Assembly (NCBI GenBank): GCA_030682575.1
Contig: JAUXNX010000024.1
Coordinates: forward strand, 1-36,490
From: Gammaproteobacteria bacterium
GTDB lineage: Bacteria; Pseudomonadota; Gammaproteobacteria; Pseudomonadales; Pseudohongiellaceae
Length of the DNA stretch: 36,490 nucleotides
Direction of reading: 5' to 3'
Positions 11,379 to 17,658 of this stretch are shown here, piece by piece; the first letter of the stretch is position 1, and each line of letters opens with the position of its first letter. The position numbers and the translations under genes were made by a program. The notes under the pieces were generated by a model. The model did no database searches, was not told where the DNA came from, and saw only the letters and a list, made by a program, of their open reading frames with translations.

Positions 11379-12806
11379 ATGGCGATTGAACGCGGTCAAT
11401 TCAGCTCCAAACTGGGTTTCATTCTCGCGGCTGCAGGCTCGGCCGTTGGGCTTGGCAATCTGGTGGCGTTTCCGGTGATGGCCTCCAAGAATGGCGGAGC
11501 CGTTTTCCTCTTCGTGTATGTGCTGTTTGTCGCCCTGATCTGTCTGCCGGTGATGATGGCCGAGATTGCGATGGGGCGACGCACCCAGCGCAATCCGGTT
11601 GGTGCGTTCGTTGCGCTGTCGGACGGTAGCAGGGGTTGGCGTATGGCAGGGAATCTCGCCATTCTCACGCCGTTCATGATCGCTGTGTTCTACACCATCG
11701 TGACAGTGTGGATCGTGATCTATCTGCTGAAAGCGCTGACAGGCGGGCTGGGAGAACTGGCGCTGCCGGAAACATTTGGTGGCATGGTGGGGTCGCCTTC
11801 CGTGTTCATATACTTTGTTGTGGTGCAGATTCTGGTGTTTGCTGTGCTGCTCAGTGGTGTGAAGAAGGGGATAGAGCGGCAGGCGAAAATCCTCATGCCG
11901 ACGCTCGCCGTCATGCTGGTCGGATTGATCATCTTCGTCATGACGCTGGATAACGCCAGTGCGGGCATTCGCTACTATCTGGTGCCGGATTTCAGTCAGT
12001 TGGACAGTACAGTGGTCAATGCAGCGTTGAATCAGGCGTTCTTCTCACTGTCTCTGGGCATGGGCATCATGATTACCTACGGCTCCTATTTCAGCAGCAG
12101 TGACAGTATTCCCGGATCGAGCAGATTGGTGGCAATTGCAGACACCGGGGTGGCATTTCTTGCCGGCCTGCTGATTCTTCCCGCAATCTTTGCGTTCAAT
12201 CCGGCGACCAATCCGGAAGATCTCTCCAGCAGCAGTGTGGGGCTGATCTTCACGTATCTGCCGCAAATATTCCTCTCCATGCAGGGAGCGGTCGGCATGG
12301 TGGGGGCCAGTATCGTGGCGGCGGTGTTCTTCGCGCTGGTGTTCTTTGCAGCGTTCACTTCGCTGGTGTCCATTCTGGAGATCCCGATTTCCTACATGAT
12401 CGACGAGTGGAGTTTTTCGCGAACCAGGGCTGTGCTGACACAGGCAGCGTTGGTGAGTTTCTTCGCGATTTTTGCGGCGATGTCTTTCGGCATGTCACCA
12501 TTTTTGACTGATTTCATTCCCTATGGCGGTGGACCGAAATCTTTCTTCGACCTGCTCGCGGATACCTTTTCGGAAGTGATCCTGCCGTTCGTCGGTTTCC
12601 TCGCGTGCACCCTTTGTGCGTATCGCTGGCGCAATGGTGGGTTATCGTCCGAGCTTGTTGTCGGGGATGACAGCTACGCGGGTTCCCTGGCAGAGAAATA
12701 CATCAATTTTTCTCTGCGTACCTTCATTCCAGTCGTATTGCTTTTTGTGTTTCTGAACTCTCTGTCGCAAAAGTATTTCGCGTTCGATCTGCTGAGCCTG
12801 ATATGA
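11379..12806 (+). CDS. Sodium-dependent transporter of the neurotransmitter:sodium symporter (NSS/SNF) family
   Basis: The 475-residue integral membrane protein has about 11-12 hydrophobic segments. The N-terminus SSKLGFILAAAGSAVGLGN, then FPVMASKNGGAVFLFVY, is the TM1/TM2 signature of NSS proteins (LeuT fold), where unwound TM1 holds Na+ and substrate. In this protein the usual Trp-Arg after the Gly-Asn motif is replaced by Leu-Val-Ala, a bacterial variant, so ligand inference from LeuT is unsafe. Substrates in the family are amino acids or amines. AAAAGGG lies before the ATG. The stop overlaps the ratA start by four bases (ATGA), which suggests translational coupling in an operon with ratA and rnfH. 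Confidence 0.93.
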   Translation: MAIERGQFSSKLGFILAAAGSAVGLGNLVAFPVMASKNGGAVFLFVYVLFVALICLPVMMAEIAMGRRTQRNPVGAFVALSDGSRGWRMAGNLAILTPFMIAVFYTIVTVWIVIYLLKALTGGLGELALPETFGGMVGSPSVFIYFVVVQILVFAVLLSGVKKGIERQAKILMPTLAVMLVGLIIFVMTLDNASAGIRYYLVPDFSQLDSTVVNAALNQAFFSLSLGMGIMITYGSYFSSSDSIPGSSRLVAIADTGVAFLAGLLILPAIFAFNPATNPEDLSSSSVGLIFTYLPQIFLSMQGAVGMVGASIVAAVFFALVFFAAFTSLVSILEIPISYMIDEWSFSRTRAVLTQAALVSFFAIFAAMSFGMSPFLTDFIPYGGGPKSFFDLLADTFSEVILPFVGFLACTLCAYRWRNGGLSSELVVGDDSYAGSLAEKYINFSLRTFIPVVLLFVFLNSLSQKYFAFDLLSLI

Positions 12807-13649: not shown

Positions 13650-13940
13650 ATGGATCAGAACGATATTCCCGGCAATGACAAACGCAAGAGCCTTCTCGCT
13701 CGTATCGAAGACGGCCTGCGTGAGTACTATATCGGTCCGCATCGCCGCGAATTCGCCCGTGCCCAGCGTGACGAGGATGATCTGTTCATGCTGCTGGTAT
13801 TCTCCGAGAGTCTCGGTATTCCCAATCCCGCTACCTACTACACACTTGAGCTGTTGCCCGTGGTGTACGACCGGTTTCATGACTGGCATCGTCGCATGGG
13901 TATGGAGCGCTCACCTCTGGATCATGTCACATGCTGTTAG
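13650..13940 (+). CDS. Small protein ending in Cys-Cys, partner of an ArsA-type ATPase (cory-CC-star type)
   Basis: This 96-residue protein has no signal peptide or membrane span. It is rich in charged and aromatic residues (LREYYIGPHRREFARAQRDEDDLFMLLVFSESLGIPNPATYY) and ends exactly in HVTCC. Cys95-Cys96 are its only cysteines. From memory, NCBI names such proteins cory-CC-star after this C-terminal pair and notes ArsA-type ATPase neighbours; I know of no experimental function. AGGAG lies eight bases before the ATG. The ATPase gene starts inside its last codons (10-bp overlap), a sign of tight co-translation. A terminal di-cysteine could bind metal, form a disulfide or be an attachment site; that is inference. 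Confidence 0.85.
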   Translation: MDQNDIPGNDKRKSLLARIEDGLREYYIGPHRREFARAQRDEDDLFMLLVFSESLGIPNPATYYTLELLPVVYDRFHDWHRRMGMERSPLDHVTCC

Positions 13941-14914
13941 AACTGGCTCGATCCAAGCGTATTTTCTTCTTTGGCGGTAAGGGCGGAGTGGGAAAAACCA
14001 CTGTATCGGCGGCAACAGCCCTGGCCATGGCGATGGAGGGCAAACGTGTGCTGCTGATCTCCACCGATCCTGCACATAACCTCGGCCATCTCTTCAATCG
14101 TGAGATTGGTCCTCGTCCAGTGCGTCTTGCTCCCAATCTCGATGGTATGGAGCTTGATCCCCAGCTGACCGTCAACGAGCACCTGGATGAAGTCTCCGGT
14201 TCACTGCGAAAACTCATGGCGCCGCATCTGGCCGGAGAAGTGGACAAGCACATTGAACTCTCACGCGACGCACCCGGCATGCAGGAAGCTGCAATCATGG
14301 AGCGTATCGCCGAGGTGGTGGAGCAGGGCGCCCGCGATTACGACATGCTGGTGTTCGACACGGCACCTTCTGGACACACAGCGCGTCTGATTGCGCTGCC
14401 GGAGATGATGTCAGCGTGGACCGATGGGTTGATCCAGCGTCGGGACAAGGCCGAACGTTTCAGCTCCGTGCTGCGGAATATGGGTAGTGACAGGTCGATG
14501 GGTAATACGGTATTTGGTGGTCCAACAGATCCGCTGGTAGAGCGCGAAAGCACCATCCGCAGTTTGCTCAATCGGCGCAAACGGCGTTTCAGCGATTTGC
14601 GCTCGGCATTGTCAGATGCTGAGCGCACGTCGTTCATCATCGTGTTGGCTGCCGAGCGGCTGCCGGTGTTGGAGACCATAGAGCTGCACGATCAACTCAG
14701 GCGCACGGGTGTGAAAGTGGGCGGACTGATCGTCAACAAACGTCTGCCCGACGGCTTGGGCGACTTTCTGACAGAGCGGCGTACGCAAGAAGAAGTACAT
14801 CTGGCTACTCTGAAAGAAGCCCTGCCTGAATTGCCCAGACAGGATCTGACGCTGGTGGCTCACGACGTGGTGGGGCTTGAAGCGTTGGAGCGGTTTGCGA
14901 AAAGCCTGAAATAG
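13931..14914 (+). CDS. ArsA/Get3/TRC40-family ATPase (single-domain)
   Basis: The 327-residue protein carries the deviant Walker A GGKGGVGKT (15-23), the switch I region STDPAHNLGHLF and the switch II/A-loop DTAPSGHTARL, so it is a dimeric SIMIBI ATPase of the ArsA/Get3 family. It has one ATPase domain, not the two of classical arsenical-pump ArsA, and contains no cysteine at all. It therefore lacks both the As(III)-binding cysteines of ArsA and the zinc-binding CxxC of Get3. No arsB, arsR or arsD is nearby, so arsenic resistance is unlikely. It overlaps the upstream CC-tail gene by ten bases and probably works with that protein. Confidence 0.9.
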   Translation: MLLELARSKRIFFFGGKGGVGKTTVSAATALAMAMEGKRVLLISTDPAHNLGHLFNREIGPRPVRLAPNLDGMELDPQLTVNEHLDEVSGSLRKLMAPHLAGEVDKHIELSRDAPGMQEAAIMERIAEVVEQGARDYDMLVFDTAPSGHTARLIALPEMMSAWTDGLIQRRDKAERFSSVLRNMGSDRSMGNTVFGGPTDPLVERESTIRSLLNRRKRRFSDLRSALSDAERTSFIIVLAAERLPVLETIELHDQLRRTGVKVGGLIVNKRLPDGLGDFLTERRTQEEVHLATLKEALPELPRQDLTLVAHDVVGLEALERFAKSLK

Positions 14915-15089: not shown

Positions 15090-15137
15090 TTTGCGTTTGC
15101 GCCTCGTTGACCTGATGAGCCAGAGTCTATCGTGCGA

Positions 15138-15440
15138 ATGACTGAAGATAGAATCAACAATCTGAAGACGAGTGTCGGGAAATTCCTGGCGTTCAGTTTC
15201 GTGCTGGTTTTCCTGTTTGCTCAAAGCACCTCCCTGGTGCATACGCATGCTGGTGATCTCAAGAAGCATGTCGATTGTGAACTCTGTCTGAAAGTAGGTT
15301 CCGGCGACGACGTGCTCGCCACCACGCATTCGATCCATGAATTTTCTGCATCTGCGGAGCACACCGCGCAACAGCCAACCCTGGCAACCAGCTTCAAGGC
15401 TATTACGGCCAAGTCCCGCTCGCCCCCCCTGTTCGTCTGA
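15138..15440 (+). CDS. Small exported His/Cys-rich protein, putative zinc-binding (zinc-uptake accessory)
   Basis: The 100-residue protein begins with a hydrophobic segment (FLAFSFVLVFLFAQ) typical of a signal peptide. It continues with a metal-ligand-rich segment, LVHTHAGDLKKHVDCELCLK, containing three His and a CxxC, followed by further His residues. Proteins of this look are found beside zinc importers and have been annotated as zinc chaperones. The position between a Zur box and a ZnuD-like receptor supports zinc binding in the periplasm, but the function is inferred. The start is uncertain: ATG at 15138, or GTG two codons earlier at 15132; neither has a strong ribosome binding site. Confidence 0.7.
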   Translation: MTEDRINNLKTSVGKFLAFSFVLVFLFAQSTSLVHTHAGDLKKHVDCELCLKVGSGDDVLATTHSIHEFSASAEHTAQQPTLATSFKAITAKSRSPPLFV

Positions 15441-15564: not shown

Positions 15565-17658
15565 ATGCTATTCAAACGATCTCCTCTTAGCCTTGCTGTG
15601 ACACTGGTTATTGGCGGCGCTACCTTGAGCGTGCCATCAACCCTCTTCGCGCAATCAGTATCAGCCAACGAAGCCGCCATTCCCGTTATCGAAGTCACTG
15701 CTTTGGGAGTGGATGAGAACGCCAACCTTATTGTTGCCCCCTACAACATTCTGGAGGAGCGTGAGGTGTTCACGCGCGGAGGCAATCTGGGCGATCTTCT
15801 GAATGGTTTGCCCGGAATTCATTCTGACAGTTTTGGTGGTGGCGCGAGTCGGCCGGTGGTGCGTGGACAAACCTCGCCGCGCCTGAAAGTCTTGTCTGAT
15901 GGCGGCTCCATTCTCGATGCGTCGGACATCTCTCCGGATCACGCGATTTCAGCCGATCCGTTGCTCGCGCAGCGCATAGAAGTTTTGCGCGGCCCGGCAA
16001 CTCTCCTTTACGGGGGGGGAGCGATAGGTGGTGCGGTTAACATTCTGGATAACAAGATCCCAACTGCCATGCCTGACTCAGGCATCGACAGTTTTATTGC
16101 GATCCGCGGTAATACAGTGGCGGACGAAAGAGCGGGAGCGGCCAGTGTGACTGCGCAGGCTACTAACAATATTGCCTTGCATCTCGAAGGCTCTTTGCGT
16201 GAGTCCGACGATTACAAGGCCCGCAACTGGACCGAATCGCGCGTCGATGGCACCTTCTCGGAAAGCAAGAACAGCAGCATTGGTGCTTCCTGGATAGGGG
16301 ACAGTGGTTACATGGGATTGGCTTACACATATCGAGATGATGAGTACGGACTGCCGGGCCACAATCACGAGTACGAAGGGTGTCATCCCCACGGCAGTGC
16401 CCTGCATTGCGGCAGCGATGAAGAGGAAGAGCATGATCACGAAGAGGAGTACGAAGAAGTGCCCGTGGTTGATCTGAATAGCAGGCGAATCGATCTGCGC
16501 GGGGAGTACAACGATCCTGTAGCAGGCATACACCGGATTCGCCTGCGCGGCAGTCATACGGACTATGAACATCACGAACTTGAAGAAGGTGTTATTTCCA
16601 CTACCTTCCGTAACAAGGGCTACGAAGGCCGTATTGACATTGATCATGCTCCCGTTTTTGGCTGGCATGGCGTTGTCGGTTTACAGTTTTCTGATACGCG
16701 CTTCAGTTCCATTGGCGCTGAGACATTCATTCCCGTAACTGATTCCAGCATGAGAAGTGTTTTCGTGGTGGAGCATTATGAGTTGACCGAAAGCTGGCAC
16801 ATTGAAGGTGGGGCGCGATATGAGAATCAGTCTTACAAACCTGTTCGCGATCCACGTAATCGCCCGAGCTACGACAAATCTGCATTCTCGTGGTCCGCTG
16901 CATCCATCTGGACATTGACAGATGACACTAGCCTGGCGGCGACATTCTCCAGAGCGCAGCGTCTCCCGCAATCTCAGGAGCTGTACGCCCGCGGCGTTCA
17001 CCTCGCGACGAATACCTACGAATGCGGTTTGGTGAATCACCCGCTGACGTGCGGTGGCGCGGCAAACAATGCCAGCATCGAGAAGGAAACGTCCCGCAAT
17101 ATCGATTTGTCCCTGCGTAAACATACGGGGGCGCTCACCTACAGCCTGAATCTTTTCCGCAACAATGTGGATGGTTACATCTTTGCCCGCACGCTGGATC
17201 AGTACGAGGATTTCCGTCTGATCAAGTACACGCAGCGCGACGCTGTCCTCGAGGGCCTGGAAGCGGAGATCAGTTACGAGTTCAGTCCCGTTCTCGCGGC
17301 AACGGTATTTGGTGATCGCGTGGAGGCGCATCTTTCTGGCGTCGACAGACTGCCACGTATTTCACCGCAGCGAGTTGGTGCGCGTGTGAACTTCATGGTC
17401 AGCAATATCGAGACGGAGATCGAGTATTACCACGTGAGCCGACAGACCGATGTGGCTGCCTTTGAATCTGAAACACCAGGTTACAACATGGCAAACATCA
17501 GTTTGAATTACAGTTTCCCTGCAGATGCGAGGTACTCGGTTTTCCTGCGTGGTTCCAATTTGCTGGATGAGGAAGTCTGGAGTCACACGTCCTTTCTTGC
17601 CAGCGTGATTCCGATGCCAGGCCGTAGTCTGAGTGCAGGGTTCAAGATGAGTTTCTGA
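15565..17658 (+). CDS. znuD: ZnuD-like TonB-dependent zinc receptor
   Basis: The 697-residue outer-membrane receptor has a signal peptide ending STLFAQ (about 30), a possible TonB box (IPVIEVTAL), a plug domain (LGDLLNGLPGIHSD, RPVVRGQTSPRLKVL, QRIEVLRGPATLLYGGGAIGGAVNI) and a barrel ending MSF. An extracellular loop at about 264-298 is loaded with metal ligands (HNHEYEGCHPHG, then HCGSDEEEEHDHEEE), the hallmark of the ZnuD zinc receptor. AAGGA precedes the ATG. It is last in the Zur-controlled module and has its own strong terminator. A copper or other metal ligand cannot be excluded, but Zur control and the His/Glu loop favour zinc. Confidence 0.87.
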   Translation: MLFKRSPLSLAVTLVIGGATLSVPSTLFAQSVSANEAAIPVIEVTALGVDENANLIVAPYNILEEREVFTRGGNLGDLLNGLPGIHSDSFGGGASRPVVRGQTSPRLKVLSDGGSILDASDISPDHAISADPLLAQRIEVLRGPATLLYGGGAIGGAVNILDNKIPTAMPDSGIDSFIAIRGNTVADERAGAASVTAQATNNIALHLEGSLRESDDYKARNWTESRVDGTFSESKNSSIGASWIGDSGYMGLAYTYRDDEYGLPGHNHEYEGCHPHGSALHCGSDEEEEHDHEEEYEEVPVVDLNSRRIDLRGEYNDPVAGIHRIRLRGSHTDYEHHELEEGVISTTFRNKGYEGRIDIDHAPVFGWHGVVGLQFSDTRFSSIGAETFIPVTDSSMRSVFVVEHYELTESWHIEGGARYENQSYKPVRDPRNRPSYDKSAFSWSAASIWTLTDDTSLAATFSRAQRLPQSQELYARGVHLATNTYECGLVNHPLTCGGAANNASIEKETSRNIDLSLRKHTGALTYSLNLFRNNVDGYIFARTLDQYEDFRLIKYTQRDAVLEGLEAEISYEFSPVLAATVFGDRVEAHLSGVDRLPRISPQRVGARVNFMVSNIETEIEYYHVSRQTDVAAFESETPGYNMANISLNYSFPADARYSVFLRGSNLLDEEVWSHTSFLASVIPMPGRSLSAGFKMSF

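What the first reader, a model, noticed from the sequence alone, without database searches (positions are those of the whole stretch)
13650..14914. CC-tail small protein translationally coupled to a cysteine-free ArsA-type ATPase
Seen: a 96-residue protein ending in exactly two cysteines, its only ones, whose gene overlaps by ten bases an ArsA/Get3-type ATPase that has no cysteine at all. Known: ArsA uses cysteines to bind As(III), and Get3 uses a CxxC for zinc. Inference: the ATPase has lost metal or thiol chemistry and the small partner supplies it from its C-terminus, or the CC tail is the cargo or attachment signal the ATPase handles. No ars gene is nearby. From memory the pair recurs (cory-CC-star) but has no experimental function.
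Basis: partly seen in the sequence, partly recalled or inferred. Interest (0 to 1): 0.7.

Follow-up and report, generated by a model that had tools for sequence, protein, structure and literature searches.

The report
ATPase module for a nutrient transporter
A tiny protein ending in two cysteines and the ATP-burning enzyme encoded right after it are most likely add-on parts of a bacterial nutrient importer of the CstA (carbon-starvation) family, a link proposed in 2010, rather than an arsenic or metal system.

Summary
In detail: a 96-aa protein ending in its only two cysteines (NCBIfam cory-CC-star) overlaps by ten bases a cysteine-free, single-domain ArsA/Get3-type ATPase.

The missing piece is a third gene. 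In 43 of 109 distinct loci (Gamma- and Alphaproteobacteria, Actinomycetota, Bacillota) a short CstA-family transporter gene lies upstream. In the window's near relatives the pair sits in the ratA-rnfH block with cstA elsewhere. Counting the window's genome, 23 of 26 cory genomes have a short CstA. The window's assembly shows none; the contig expected to carry it ends in a transposase-like gene.

Castillo and Saier (2010) already proposed CstA-CstX-ArsA operons; cory is almost certainly CstX.

Added here: CC is kept in 109 of 109 loci. A divergent lineage keeps the gene partnership without cysteines, against metal supply to the ATPase. YbdD, the other CstA partner, also ends in CC, without detectable homology. 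Fourteen cory loci hold a further, unnamed CstA-linked protein; its CC pair reads TGA-Cys in Cytobacillus, a selenocysteine candidate. This favours thiol or selenol chemistry at the transporter, untested.

The parts
13650..13940 (+). cory-CC-star (probable CstX), 96 aa; predicted helices 9-52 and 62-82, uncertain CC tail
13932..13937 (+). TGC TGT, the terminal Cys-Cys codons; TG of the first codon also completes the ATPase start codon
13931..13940 (+). ten-base overlap of the two genes
13931..14914 (+). single-domain ArsA/Get3-type ATPase, 327 aa, no Cys
13973..13999 (+). deviant Walker A GGKGGVGKT; each position at least 97% conserved in 105 aligned ATPases (two seen to differ: GKGGGGKT in L084, GKGGLSKT in L076)
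14357..14380 (+). DTAPSGHT (DTAP) motif; D[TS]AP[ST]GH in 105 of 105 aligned ATPases
14759..14770 (+). GDFL where the archaeal chain 3zq6 has CEFC (that this is the Get3 zinc motif is recalled)
   Evidence: alignment

Best explanation
The pair is the ATP-dependent accessory module of a short CstA-type (carbon-starvation family) transporter, i.e. the CstX-ArsA part of the CstA-CstX-ArsA operons proposed in 2010. Shown by sequence: family identities, conserved order CstA-cory-ATPase in many lineages, and one-way dependence (cory goes with a CstA, while short CstA can exist without cory). Inferred: cory is a helical adaptor that touches both CstA and the ATPase dimer, and the ATPase cycle energises or gates uptake by CstA (pyruvate in E. 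coli relatives; the short CstA's substrate is unknown). Inferred with less weight: the C-terminal Cys-Cys is a reactive dithiol working at the transporter, as the CC/CU tail of the unrelated partner YbdD/KCU-star may do.
For: CstA frame upstream on the same strand in 43 of 109 distinct loci (annotated 'carbon starvation protein A'; PF02554). Short CstA in 23 of 25 genomes with a real cory gene among the 26; with the window's own genome, 23 of 26. Class sample: any CstA in 7 of 8 cory genomes against 51 of 361 others (Fisher 1.2e-5); the close short type (my reading of score and frame) 7 of 8 against 4 of 361 (1.5e-11). Actinobacterial sample: CstA in 22 of 23 cory hits, 17 of 17 above cut-off, against 53 of 273 others (1e-13). 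41 of 43 CstA proteins of cory genomes lie on one side of a branch with SH-aLRT 99. Of four cory-less genomes nested there, G348 has only short P-loop matches, G622 only sub-threshold ATPase matches, and the full ATPases of G644 and G569 carry the ArsA_HSP20 domain of the Get3d kind. In a divergent lineage small protein and ATPase are both duplicated beside CstA. YbdD is needed for CstA pyruvate uptake in E. coli (PMC5847655, passages). Earlier independent proposal: PMC2963123 (abstract, section 3.2, Table 1, passages); its cluster 18 includes Pseudomonas stutzeri, and Stutzerimonas stutzeri L071 has CstA-cory-ATPase here.
Against: No CstA in the window's own assembly nor in G369; G374 has only a long CstA. 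G171 has CstA and cory but no ATPase over threshold anywhere. In 64 of the 80 scan loci the pair is not beside CstA. No interaction or activity was tested and no complex was modelled. Published CstX sequences were not at hand, so cory = CstX rests on size, operon and organism; the paper calls CstX single-TMS, which I did not test. CC-less cory paralogues exist, so the tail's role is not universal.
Confidence: 0.62

Rival explanations
1. The ATPase is a Get3-like targeting factor: it holds a hydrophobic helix of cory or CstA and delivers it to the membrane, so the module assembles CstA rather than energising it.
For: Alignment over residues 9-326 with the single-domain chain 3zq6 (167 bits); TIGR00345 covers Get3 and ArsA alike.
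Against: Cory ends in a polar stretch and CC, not in an evident membrane anchor (no transmembrane prediction was run). Short CstA exists without the module.
Confidence: 0.2
2. One reading: the cory tail supplies metal or thiol chemistry that the ATPase lost, or the tail is the cargo of the ATPase.
For: CC kept in 109 of 109 loci. In 15 evaluable loci its codons give no ATG/GTG/TTG start in the ATPase frame (five out of frame, ten would need the rare start CTG), yet CC is kept.
Against: The ATPases have no conserved Cys and no CxxC. Cysteine-free cory paralogues keep the gene partnership. The usual partner is a nutrient transporter.
Confidence: 0.13
3. In this lineage the partner is the neighbouring sodium-dependent (NSS/SNF) transporter at 11379-12806.
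For: It lies two genes upstream (PF00209); a homologue was found in 58 of the 96 loci compared, seven of which are not cory loci.
Against: NSS is next to ratA in 6 of 15 cory-less genomes, so it belongs to the block; it is absent in cory loci L022-L024.
Confidence: 0.03
4. In this particular genome the pair is a leftover after loss of cstA.
For: No CstA match in 3.73 Mb, estimated 100% complete (only one search had a positive control). The orthologue of the TetR-type gene beside cstA in the near relative G370 lies at a contig end that runs into a transposase-like start (Pfam HTH_Tnp_1 below cut-off).
Against: A contig end at a mobile element is also what a collapsed repeat gives, so the gene may be unassembled. 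Both frames are intact, and 8 of 10 tested relatives with the same layout have a short CstA.
Confidence: 0.3

Closest known systems
CstA-CstX-ArsA operons (Castillo and Saier 2010, PMC2963123)
   Same: CstA transporter, CstX of about 90 aa, single-domain ArsA homologue of about 330 aa; tandem ArsA pairs in one cluster, duplicated CstX in two archaea; proposed coupling of CstA to ATP hydrolysis.
   Different: In the window lineage the pair is unlinked from cstA and placed in the ratA-rnfH block. No CC tail of CstX and no YbdD parallel appear in the parts I read (abstract, sections 12 and 27, passages).
NCBIfam NF041419 cory-CC-star protein
   Same: Above cut-off, ends in CC, followed by an ArsA family ATPase.
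   Different: The model name gives no function and no link to CstA; I did not see the model's full description.
CstA-YbdD and BtsT-YjiX-YjiA of E. coli (PF04328 / NF033934 KCU-star)
   Same: CstA-family transporter plus small helical protein ending in CC (CU in KCU-star), in the BtsT operon also a P-loop NTPase.
   Different: Long CstA (about 700 aa); small protein of 65-67 aa with no detectable homology to cory; the NTPase is a GTPase and absent beside E. coli cstA and most other loci read.
ArsD-ArsA-ArsB arsenite pump
   Same: Small protein, ArsA-type ATPase, carrier that can work alone (recalled).
   Different: ArsA there has two domains and arsenite-binding cysteines; none here.
Get3 / TRC40
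   Same: Single-domain ATPase with full-length alignment.
   Different: CxxC replaced by GDFL in the window.

Membership tests
cory-CC-star (NF041419) | profile score at or above 80 bits | tested here: met
   134.5 bits
cory-CC-star (NF041419) | C-terminal Cys-Cys | tested here: met
   window and 109 of 109 distinct loci
CstX of CstA-CstX-ArsA operons | about 90 aa, encoded with a single-domain ArsA homologue of about 330 aa | tested here: met
   96 aa and 327 aa
CstX of CstA-CstX-ArsA operons | in one operon with cstA | tested here: not met
   not in the window; met in 43 of 109 relatives
CstX of CstA-CstX-ArsA operons | never without CstA (the paper's statement) | tested here: inconclusive
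   no CstA in the window's assembly, but the expected spot is a contig end
CstX of CstA-CstX-ArsA operons | single transmembrane segment | not tested
   only a fold prediction was run: two helices
CstX of CstA-CstX-ArsA operons | sequence match to the published CstX proteins | not testable with these tools
   their sequences are not in the text read; only organism overlap (P. stutzeri; L071)
ArsA arsenical pump ATPase (TIGR04291) | score at or above 650 bits, two ATPase domains | tested here: not met
   153 bits; 327 aa, one P-loop domain
ArsA arsenical pump ATPase (TIGR04291) | arsenite-binding cysteines | tested here: not met
   no Cys at all
GET3/ArsA/TRC40 family (TIGR00345) | score at or above 135 bits | tested here: met
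   241.1 bits
Get3 proper | CxxC | tested here: not met
   GDFL aligned to CEFC of 3zq6; none in 106 rows
Get3 proper | binding of tail-anchored clients | not testable with these tools
   needs biochemistry
YbdD/YjiX (PF04328, NF033934) | profile match | tested here: not met
   no Pfam match; hhalign probability 0.5%
YbdD/YjiX (PF04328, NF033934) | small CstA-linked protein ending in CC or CU | tested here: met
   a likeness of kind only: 22 of 24 aligned YbdD-type proteins end in CC, 2 in CPC

The most novel reading that the evidence does not exclude
CstA-family importers have repeatedly taken on unrelated small proteins with a vicinal Cys-Cys or Cys-Sec pair: YbdD/KCU-star, cory/CstX, and an unnamed protein with GCCGR that reads as Sec-Cys in Cytobacillus. 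The pair is a reactive dithiol or selenol at the transporter, and in the cory branch an ArsA-type ATPase makes a proton-driven importer ATP- and redox-controlled, an import counterpart of ArsAB.
Probability: 0.3. Interest if true: 0.8.

Novelty: new member of a known kind. Interest (0 to 1): 0.52.

Why it matters
The CstA-CstX-ArsA proposal dates from 2010, and my ten paper searches, in a library that lacks most subscription papers, listed no experiment on it that I recognised. Linking it to the NCBI family cory-CC-star, to a strictly kept CC tail and to the experimentally required YbdD of E. coli CstA makes an unnamed gene pair testable as part of a transporter. If the ATPase energises CstA, ArsA-type ATPases would drive nutrient import as well as arsenite export; if the CC pairs are redox-active, nutrient import in this family has a thiol chemistry for which I saw no published test in those searches.

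Tried and rejected
1. NSS transporter as partner: rejected by the synteny control. 2. Homology of cory and YbdD: not detectable; predicted helix layouts differ (two; three). 3. CC as a mere by-product of the overlapping start: disfavoured by 15 evaluable loci, but ten of them keep an in-frame CTG, a rare start, so only five exclude it strictly. 4. YjiA-type GTPase as a general partner of CstA-YbdD: seen in E. coli btsT, Rahnella and Klebsiella; not beside E. coli cstA, in Paracoccus, in two Pseudomonas plasmids, nor in the 20 regions of the class read. I use it as a parallel only. 5. PDB fold search with the cory model: no match; PDB sequence search with the cory profile: best E 0.79. 6. Phage link: one unannotated 10-kb record of 50,697, not pursued. 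7. I first took the CstA link to be new; brought up PMC2963123. 8. SECIS-like hairpin after the Cytobacillus TGA: z -2.36 on 44 bases, only -0.77 on 81 bases, so inconclusive.

Not done: complex prediction, transmembrane prediction, tree of the ATPases, search for selenocysteine genes in Cytobacillus, search for the fourth protein in the window's whole genome. Haloarchaea were not examined beyond the Haloferax control, which rings below cut-off. The YbdD set leaves out G284, whose copy has a stop inside. Other short CstA-like genes of lower score in cory-less genomes of the class (for example G082, G110, G227, G272, G311) are outside my 'close short type'; one of the four I did count (G116) falls outside the main group.

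They showed the cstA-cory gaps, the fourth protein and its TGA; I raised the odds of the novel reading from 0.22 to 0.3 and the interest from 0.45 to 0.52 for that reason.

Full report
OBSERVATION. Window 13650-13940 (+) encodes a 96-aa protein with exactly two cysteines, the last two residues; 13931-14914 (+) encodes a 327-aa ArsA/Get3-type ATPase with none; they share ten bases. The small protein matches NF041419 cory-CC-star at 134.5 bits (cut-off 80) and the ATPase TIGR00345 at 241 bits (cut-off 135); the ATPase fails the arsenical-pump model TIGR04291 (153 against 650).

RECURRENCE. One genome-contig scan (80 loci kept of 312 relatives), a class sample of 369 genomes (9 hits, 8 above cut-off), an actinobacterial sample of 296 genomes (23 hits, 17 above cut-off) and plasmids (6 records, four regions read) gave 113 cory loci, 109 without four duplicates; all 109 end in Cys-Cys. 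Not in this count: six weak hits (G312; G565, G420, G599, G423, G626), two plasmid records not opened, and relatives beyond the 80 kept. One of six scan patterns contained the CC end. The ATPase frame is present on the same strand in 105 of 109; three of the others lie at contig ends, and G171 has CstA and cory but no ArsA/Get3 ATPase over threshold anywhere.

THE THIRD GENE. A CstA-family transporter (PF02554, short form near 570 aa) is encoded upstream on the same strand in 43 of the 109 loci (RefSeq annotation): Pseudomonas, Luteimonas, Lysobacter, Pseudochrobactrum, Paracoccus, Cytobacillus, Kocuria, Mycolicibacterium and others. In 29 the gap is under 100 bases, in one 215, in 13 it is 400-549 (measured to 90 codons before the cory stop). 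The other loci are 64 of the 80 scan loci, all with ratA and/or rnfH, the window, and L265, which starts at a contig end.

WHOLE GENOMES. Of 26 genomes chosen for a cory hit, 25 have a CstA and 23 a short one (types read). Without a short one: G369 (none), G374 (long only), and G312, whose cory-like hit is below threshold and lacks the tail. In the class sample any CstA occurs in 7 of 8 cory genomes and 51 of 361 others, the close short type in 7 of 8 and 4 of 361. In the actinobacterial sample CstA occurs in 22 of 23 and 53 of 273; the miss, G626, has a 23-bit cory hit. The samples overlap with the 26. So cory goes with CstA, while CstA does not imply cory.

THE WINDOW'S OWN GENOME. Two searches found no CstA (the second had no positive control). 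In the near relative G370 cstA stands beside a TetR-type gene. The 75%-identical orthologue here lies at the end of contig C13, and the last 90 bases or so of that contig read as the start of a transposase-like protein (HTH_Tnp_1 at E = 0.014, below cut-off). Either cstA was displaced or the assembly stops at a repeat.

EVOLUTION. In a tree of 77 CstA proteins (quick method, SH-aLRT only, midpoint root) 41 of 43 from cory genomes lie on one side of a branch with support 99, with 11 from cory-less genomes, four of them nested (G348, G644, G569, G622). G348 has only P-loop matches and G622 sub-threshold ones; the ATPases of G644 and G569 carry ArsA_HSP20 (PF17886), the mark used for the Get3d kind, and no cory lies beside them. 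CstA of Kocuria and Mycolicibacterium groups with those of Pseudomonas and Lysobacteraceae, which suggests transfer (inference).

A CC-LESS BRANCH. In G420, G565, G599 and G423 two tandem cory-like proteins without cysteine in their last 90 residues (8 of 8 copies), below the NF041419 cut-off (36 and 31 bits in G599), accompany two ATPase genes and a CstA (partial in G599 and G565; the G420 set is on two contigs). Castillo and Saier describe tandem ArsA in Pyrobaculum arsenaticum and Symbiobacterium and two CstX in P. arsenaticum and Thermococcus kodakarensis. Paired duplication suggests one small protein per ATPase subunit (inference).

THE CC TAIL. In 89 of 109 loci the first Cys codon also completes an ATG, GTG or TTG in the ATPase frame; in 15 evaluable loci it does not (five out of frame, ten CTG), yet CC is kept. 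YbdD/YjiX (PF04328) ends in CC in 22 of 24 aligned proteins and in CPC in two; the five tested match NF033934 'KCU-star family selenoprotein' below its cut-off of 85 (70 bits for YbdD). Reviews list that family, one giving the motif CU (PMC9312934, PMC13188914, table passages). In E. coli pyruvate uptake fell to 20% without ybdD (PMC5847655, passages). Cory and YbdD show no profile similarity. In two Pseudochrobactrum records ahpC, ahpF and a LysR-type gene lie upstream, a weak redox hint from one genus.

A FOURTH PROTEIN. The 13 wide gaps all hold one conserved protein of about 100-140 aa. Its motif GCCGR has the first Cys in 12 of 13 and the second in 13 of 13. A profile of 12 rows finds it in 17 distinct loci of the set: 14 cory loci (with L265) and, right after CstA, the cory-less G644, G569 and G622. 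No Pfam or NCBIfam model reaches its cut-off in the proteins tried; weak thioredoxin-type matches were listed for two. In Cytobacillus spongiae the frame starts at an ATG after GGAGGG, and TGA stands exactly at the first Cys; the annotated gene begins after it. A hairpin follows, but its score depends on the stretch folded. It is a selenocysteine candidate from one record. The protein was not seen in the window or the other loci searched.

THE ATPASE. It aligns over residues 9-326 with chain 3zq6 (a methanogen Get3, recalled), with GDFL for CEFC. Among 105 aligned ATPases the P-loop and DTAP motifs are nearly invariant and no Cys column is conserved; switch I reads DPAHNLGH in 83 and has Asp at the last place in the other 22. 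That this place is the catalytic Asp of Get3 is recalled.

PRIOR WORK. Castillo and Saier (PMC2963123) reported 26 CstA-ArsA associations, 24 with CstX, never CstX without CstA, and proposed that CstX couples CstA to ATP hydrolysis. I found this only after building the same picture. 'cory-CC-star' gave no paper, nor did 'carbon starvation protein' with 'ArsA family ATPase'. PMC6104027 (passages) treats control of cstA by a small RNA in Haloferax volcanii; the words ArsA and CstX do not occur in it.

VERDICT. The finding is real. Its best reading is a known but, as far as I could see, untested kind of system: an ATPase plus adaptor for a CstA transporter. Added here are the link to NF041419, the test of the CC tail, the YbdD parallel, the fourth CC protein, the unlinked lineage that includes the window, and the one-way dependence across genomes.

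Noticed in passing
L099 7612-7983 (NZ_CP089998.1, Cytobacillus spongiae) and the cstA-cory gaps of L014, L015, L253-L261, L264; also L265, L310-L312: An unnamed CstA-linked protein with a conserved GCCGR motif; in Cytobacillus the first Cys codon is TGA, a selenocysteine candidate whose annotated start lies after the TGA.
   Followed up: partly
window 15132-15440 and 15565-17658 (+): A small protein with no family match, then a ZnuD-like TonB receptor (641 bits, cut-off 950) with a His/Glu-rich stretch, just before bamE and fur; homologues follow the pair in many loci of this lineage.
   Followed up: partly
G000 contig C13, last bases (L281:3816-3905): Contig ends in a transposase-like start at the place where the near relative carries cstA.
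   Followed up: partly
L282-L285, L287 (G423, G599, G420, G565): CstA with two cysteine-free cory-like genes and two ATPase genes.
   Followed up: yes
L076 near 5207: The ATPase of this MAG has an altered P-loop, GKGGLSKT.
   Followed up: no
H67, NZ_CP120994.1: A 10-kb record labelled Streptomyces encodes a YjiX 89.6% identical to that of E. coli; probably mislabelled or contaminated.
   Followed up: no
L017, CAMCRC010000073.1: A MAG labelled Klebsiella pneumoniae carries a locus whose cory protein is 92% identical to the window's; the label is probably wrong.
   Followed up: no
H87, MT836486.1 4010-4252: An unannotated 10-kb record filed as a phage encodes a cory protein 74% identical to that of Pseudomonas; probably a bacterial fragment.
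   Followed up: no
L220 and L238: Two YbdD-type proteins end in Cys-Pro-Cys instead of Cys-Cys.
   Followed up: no
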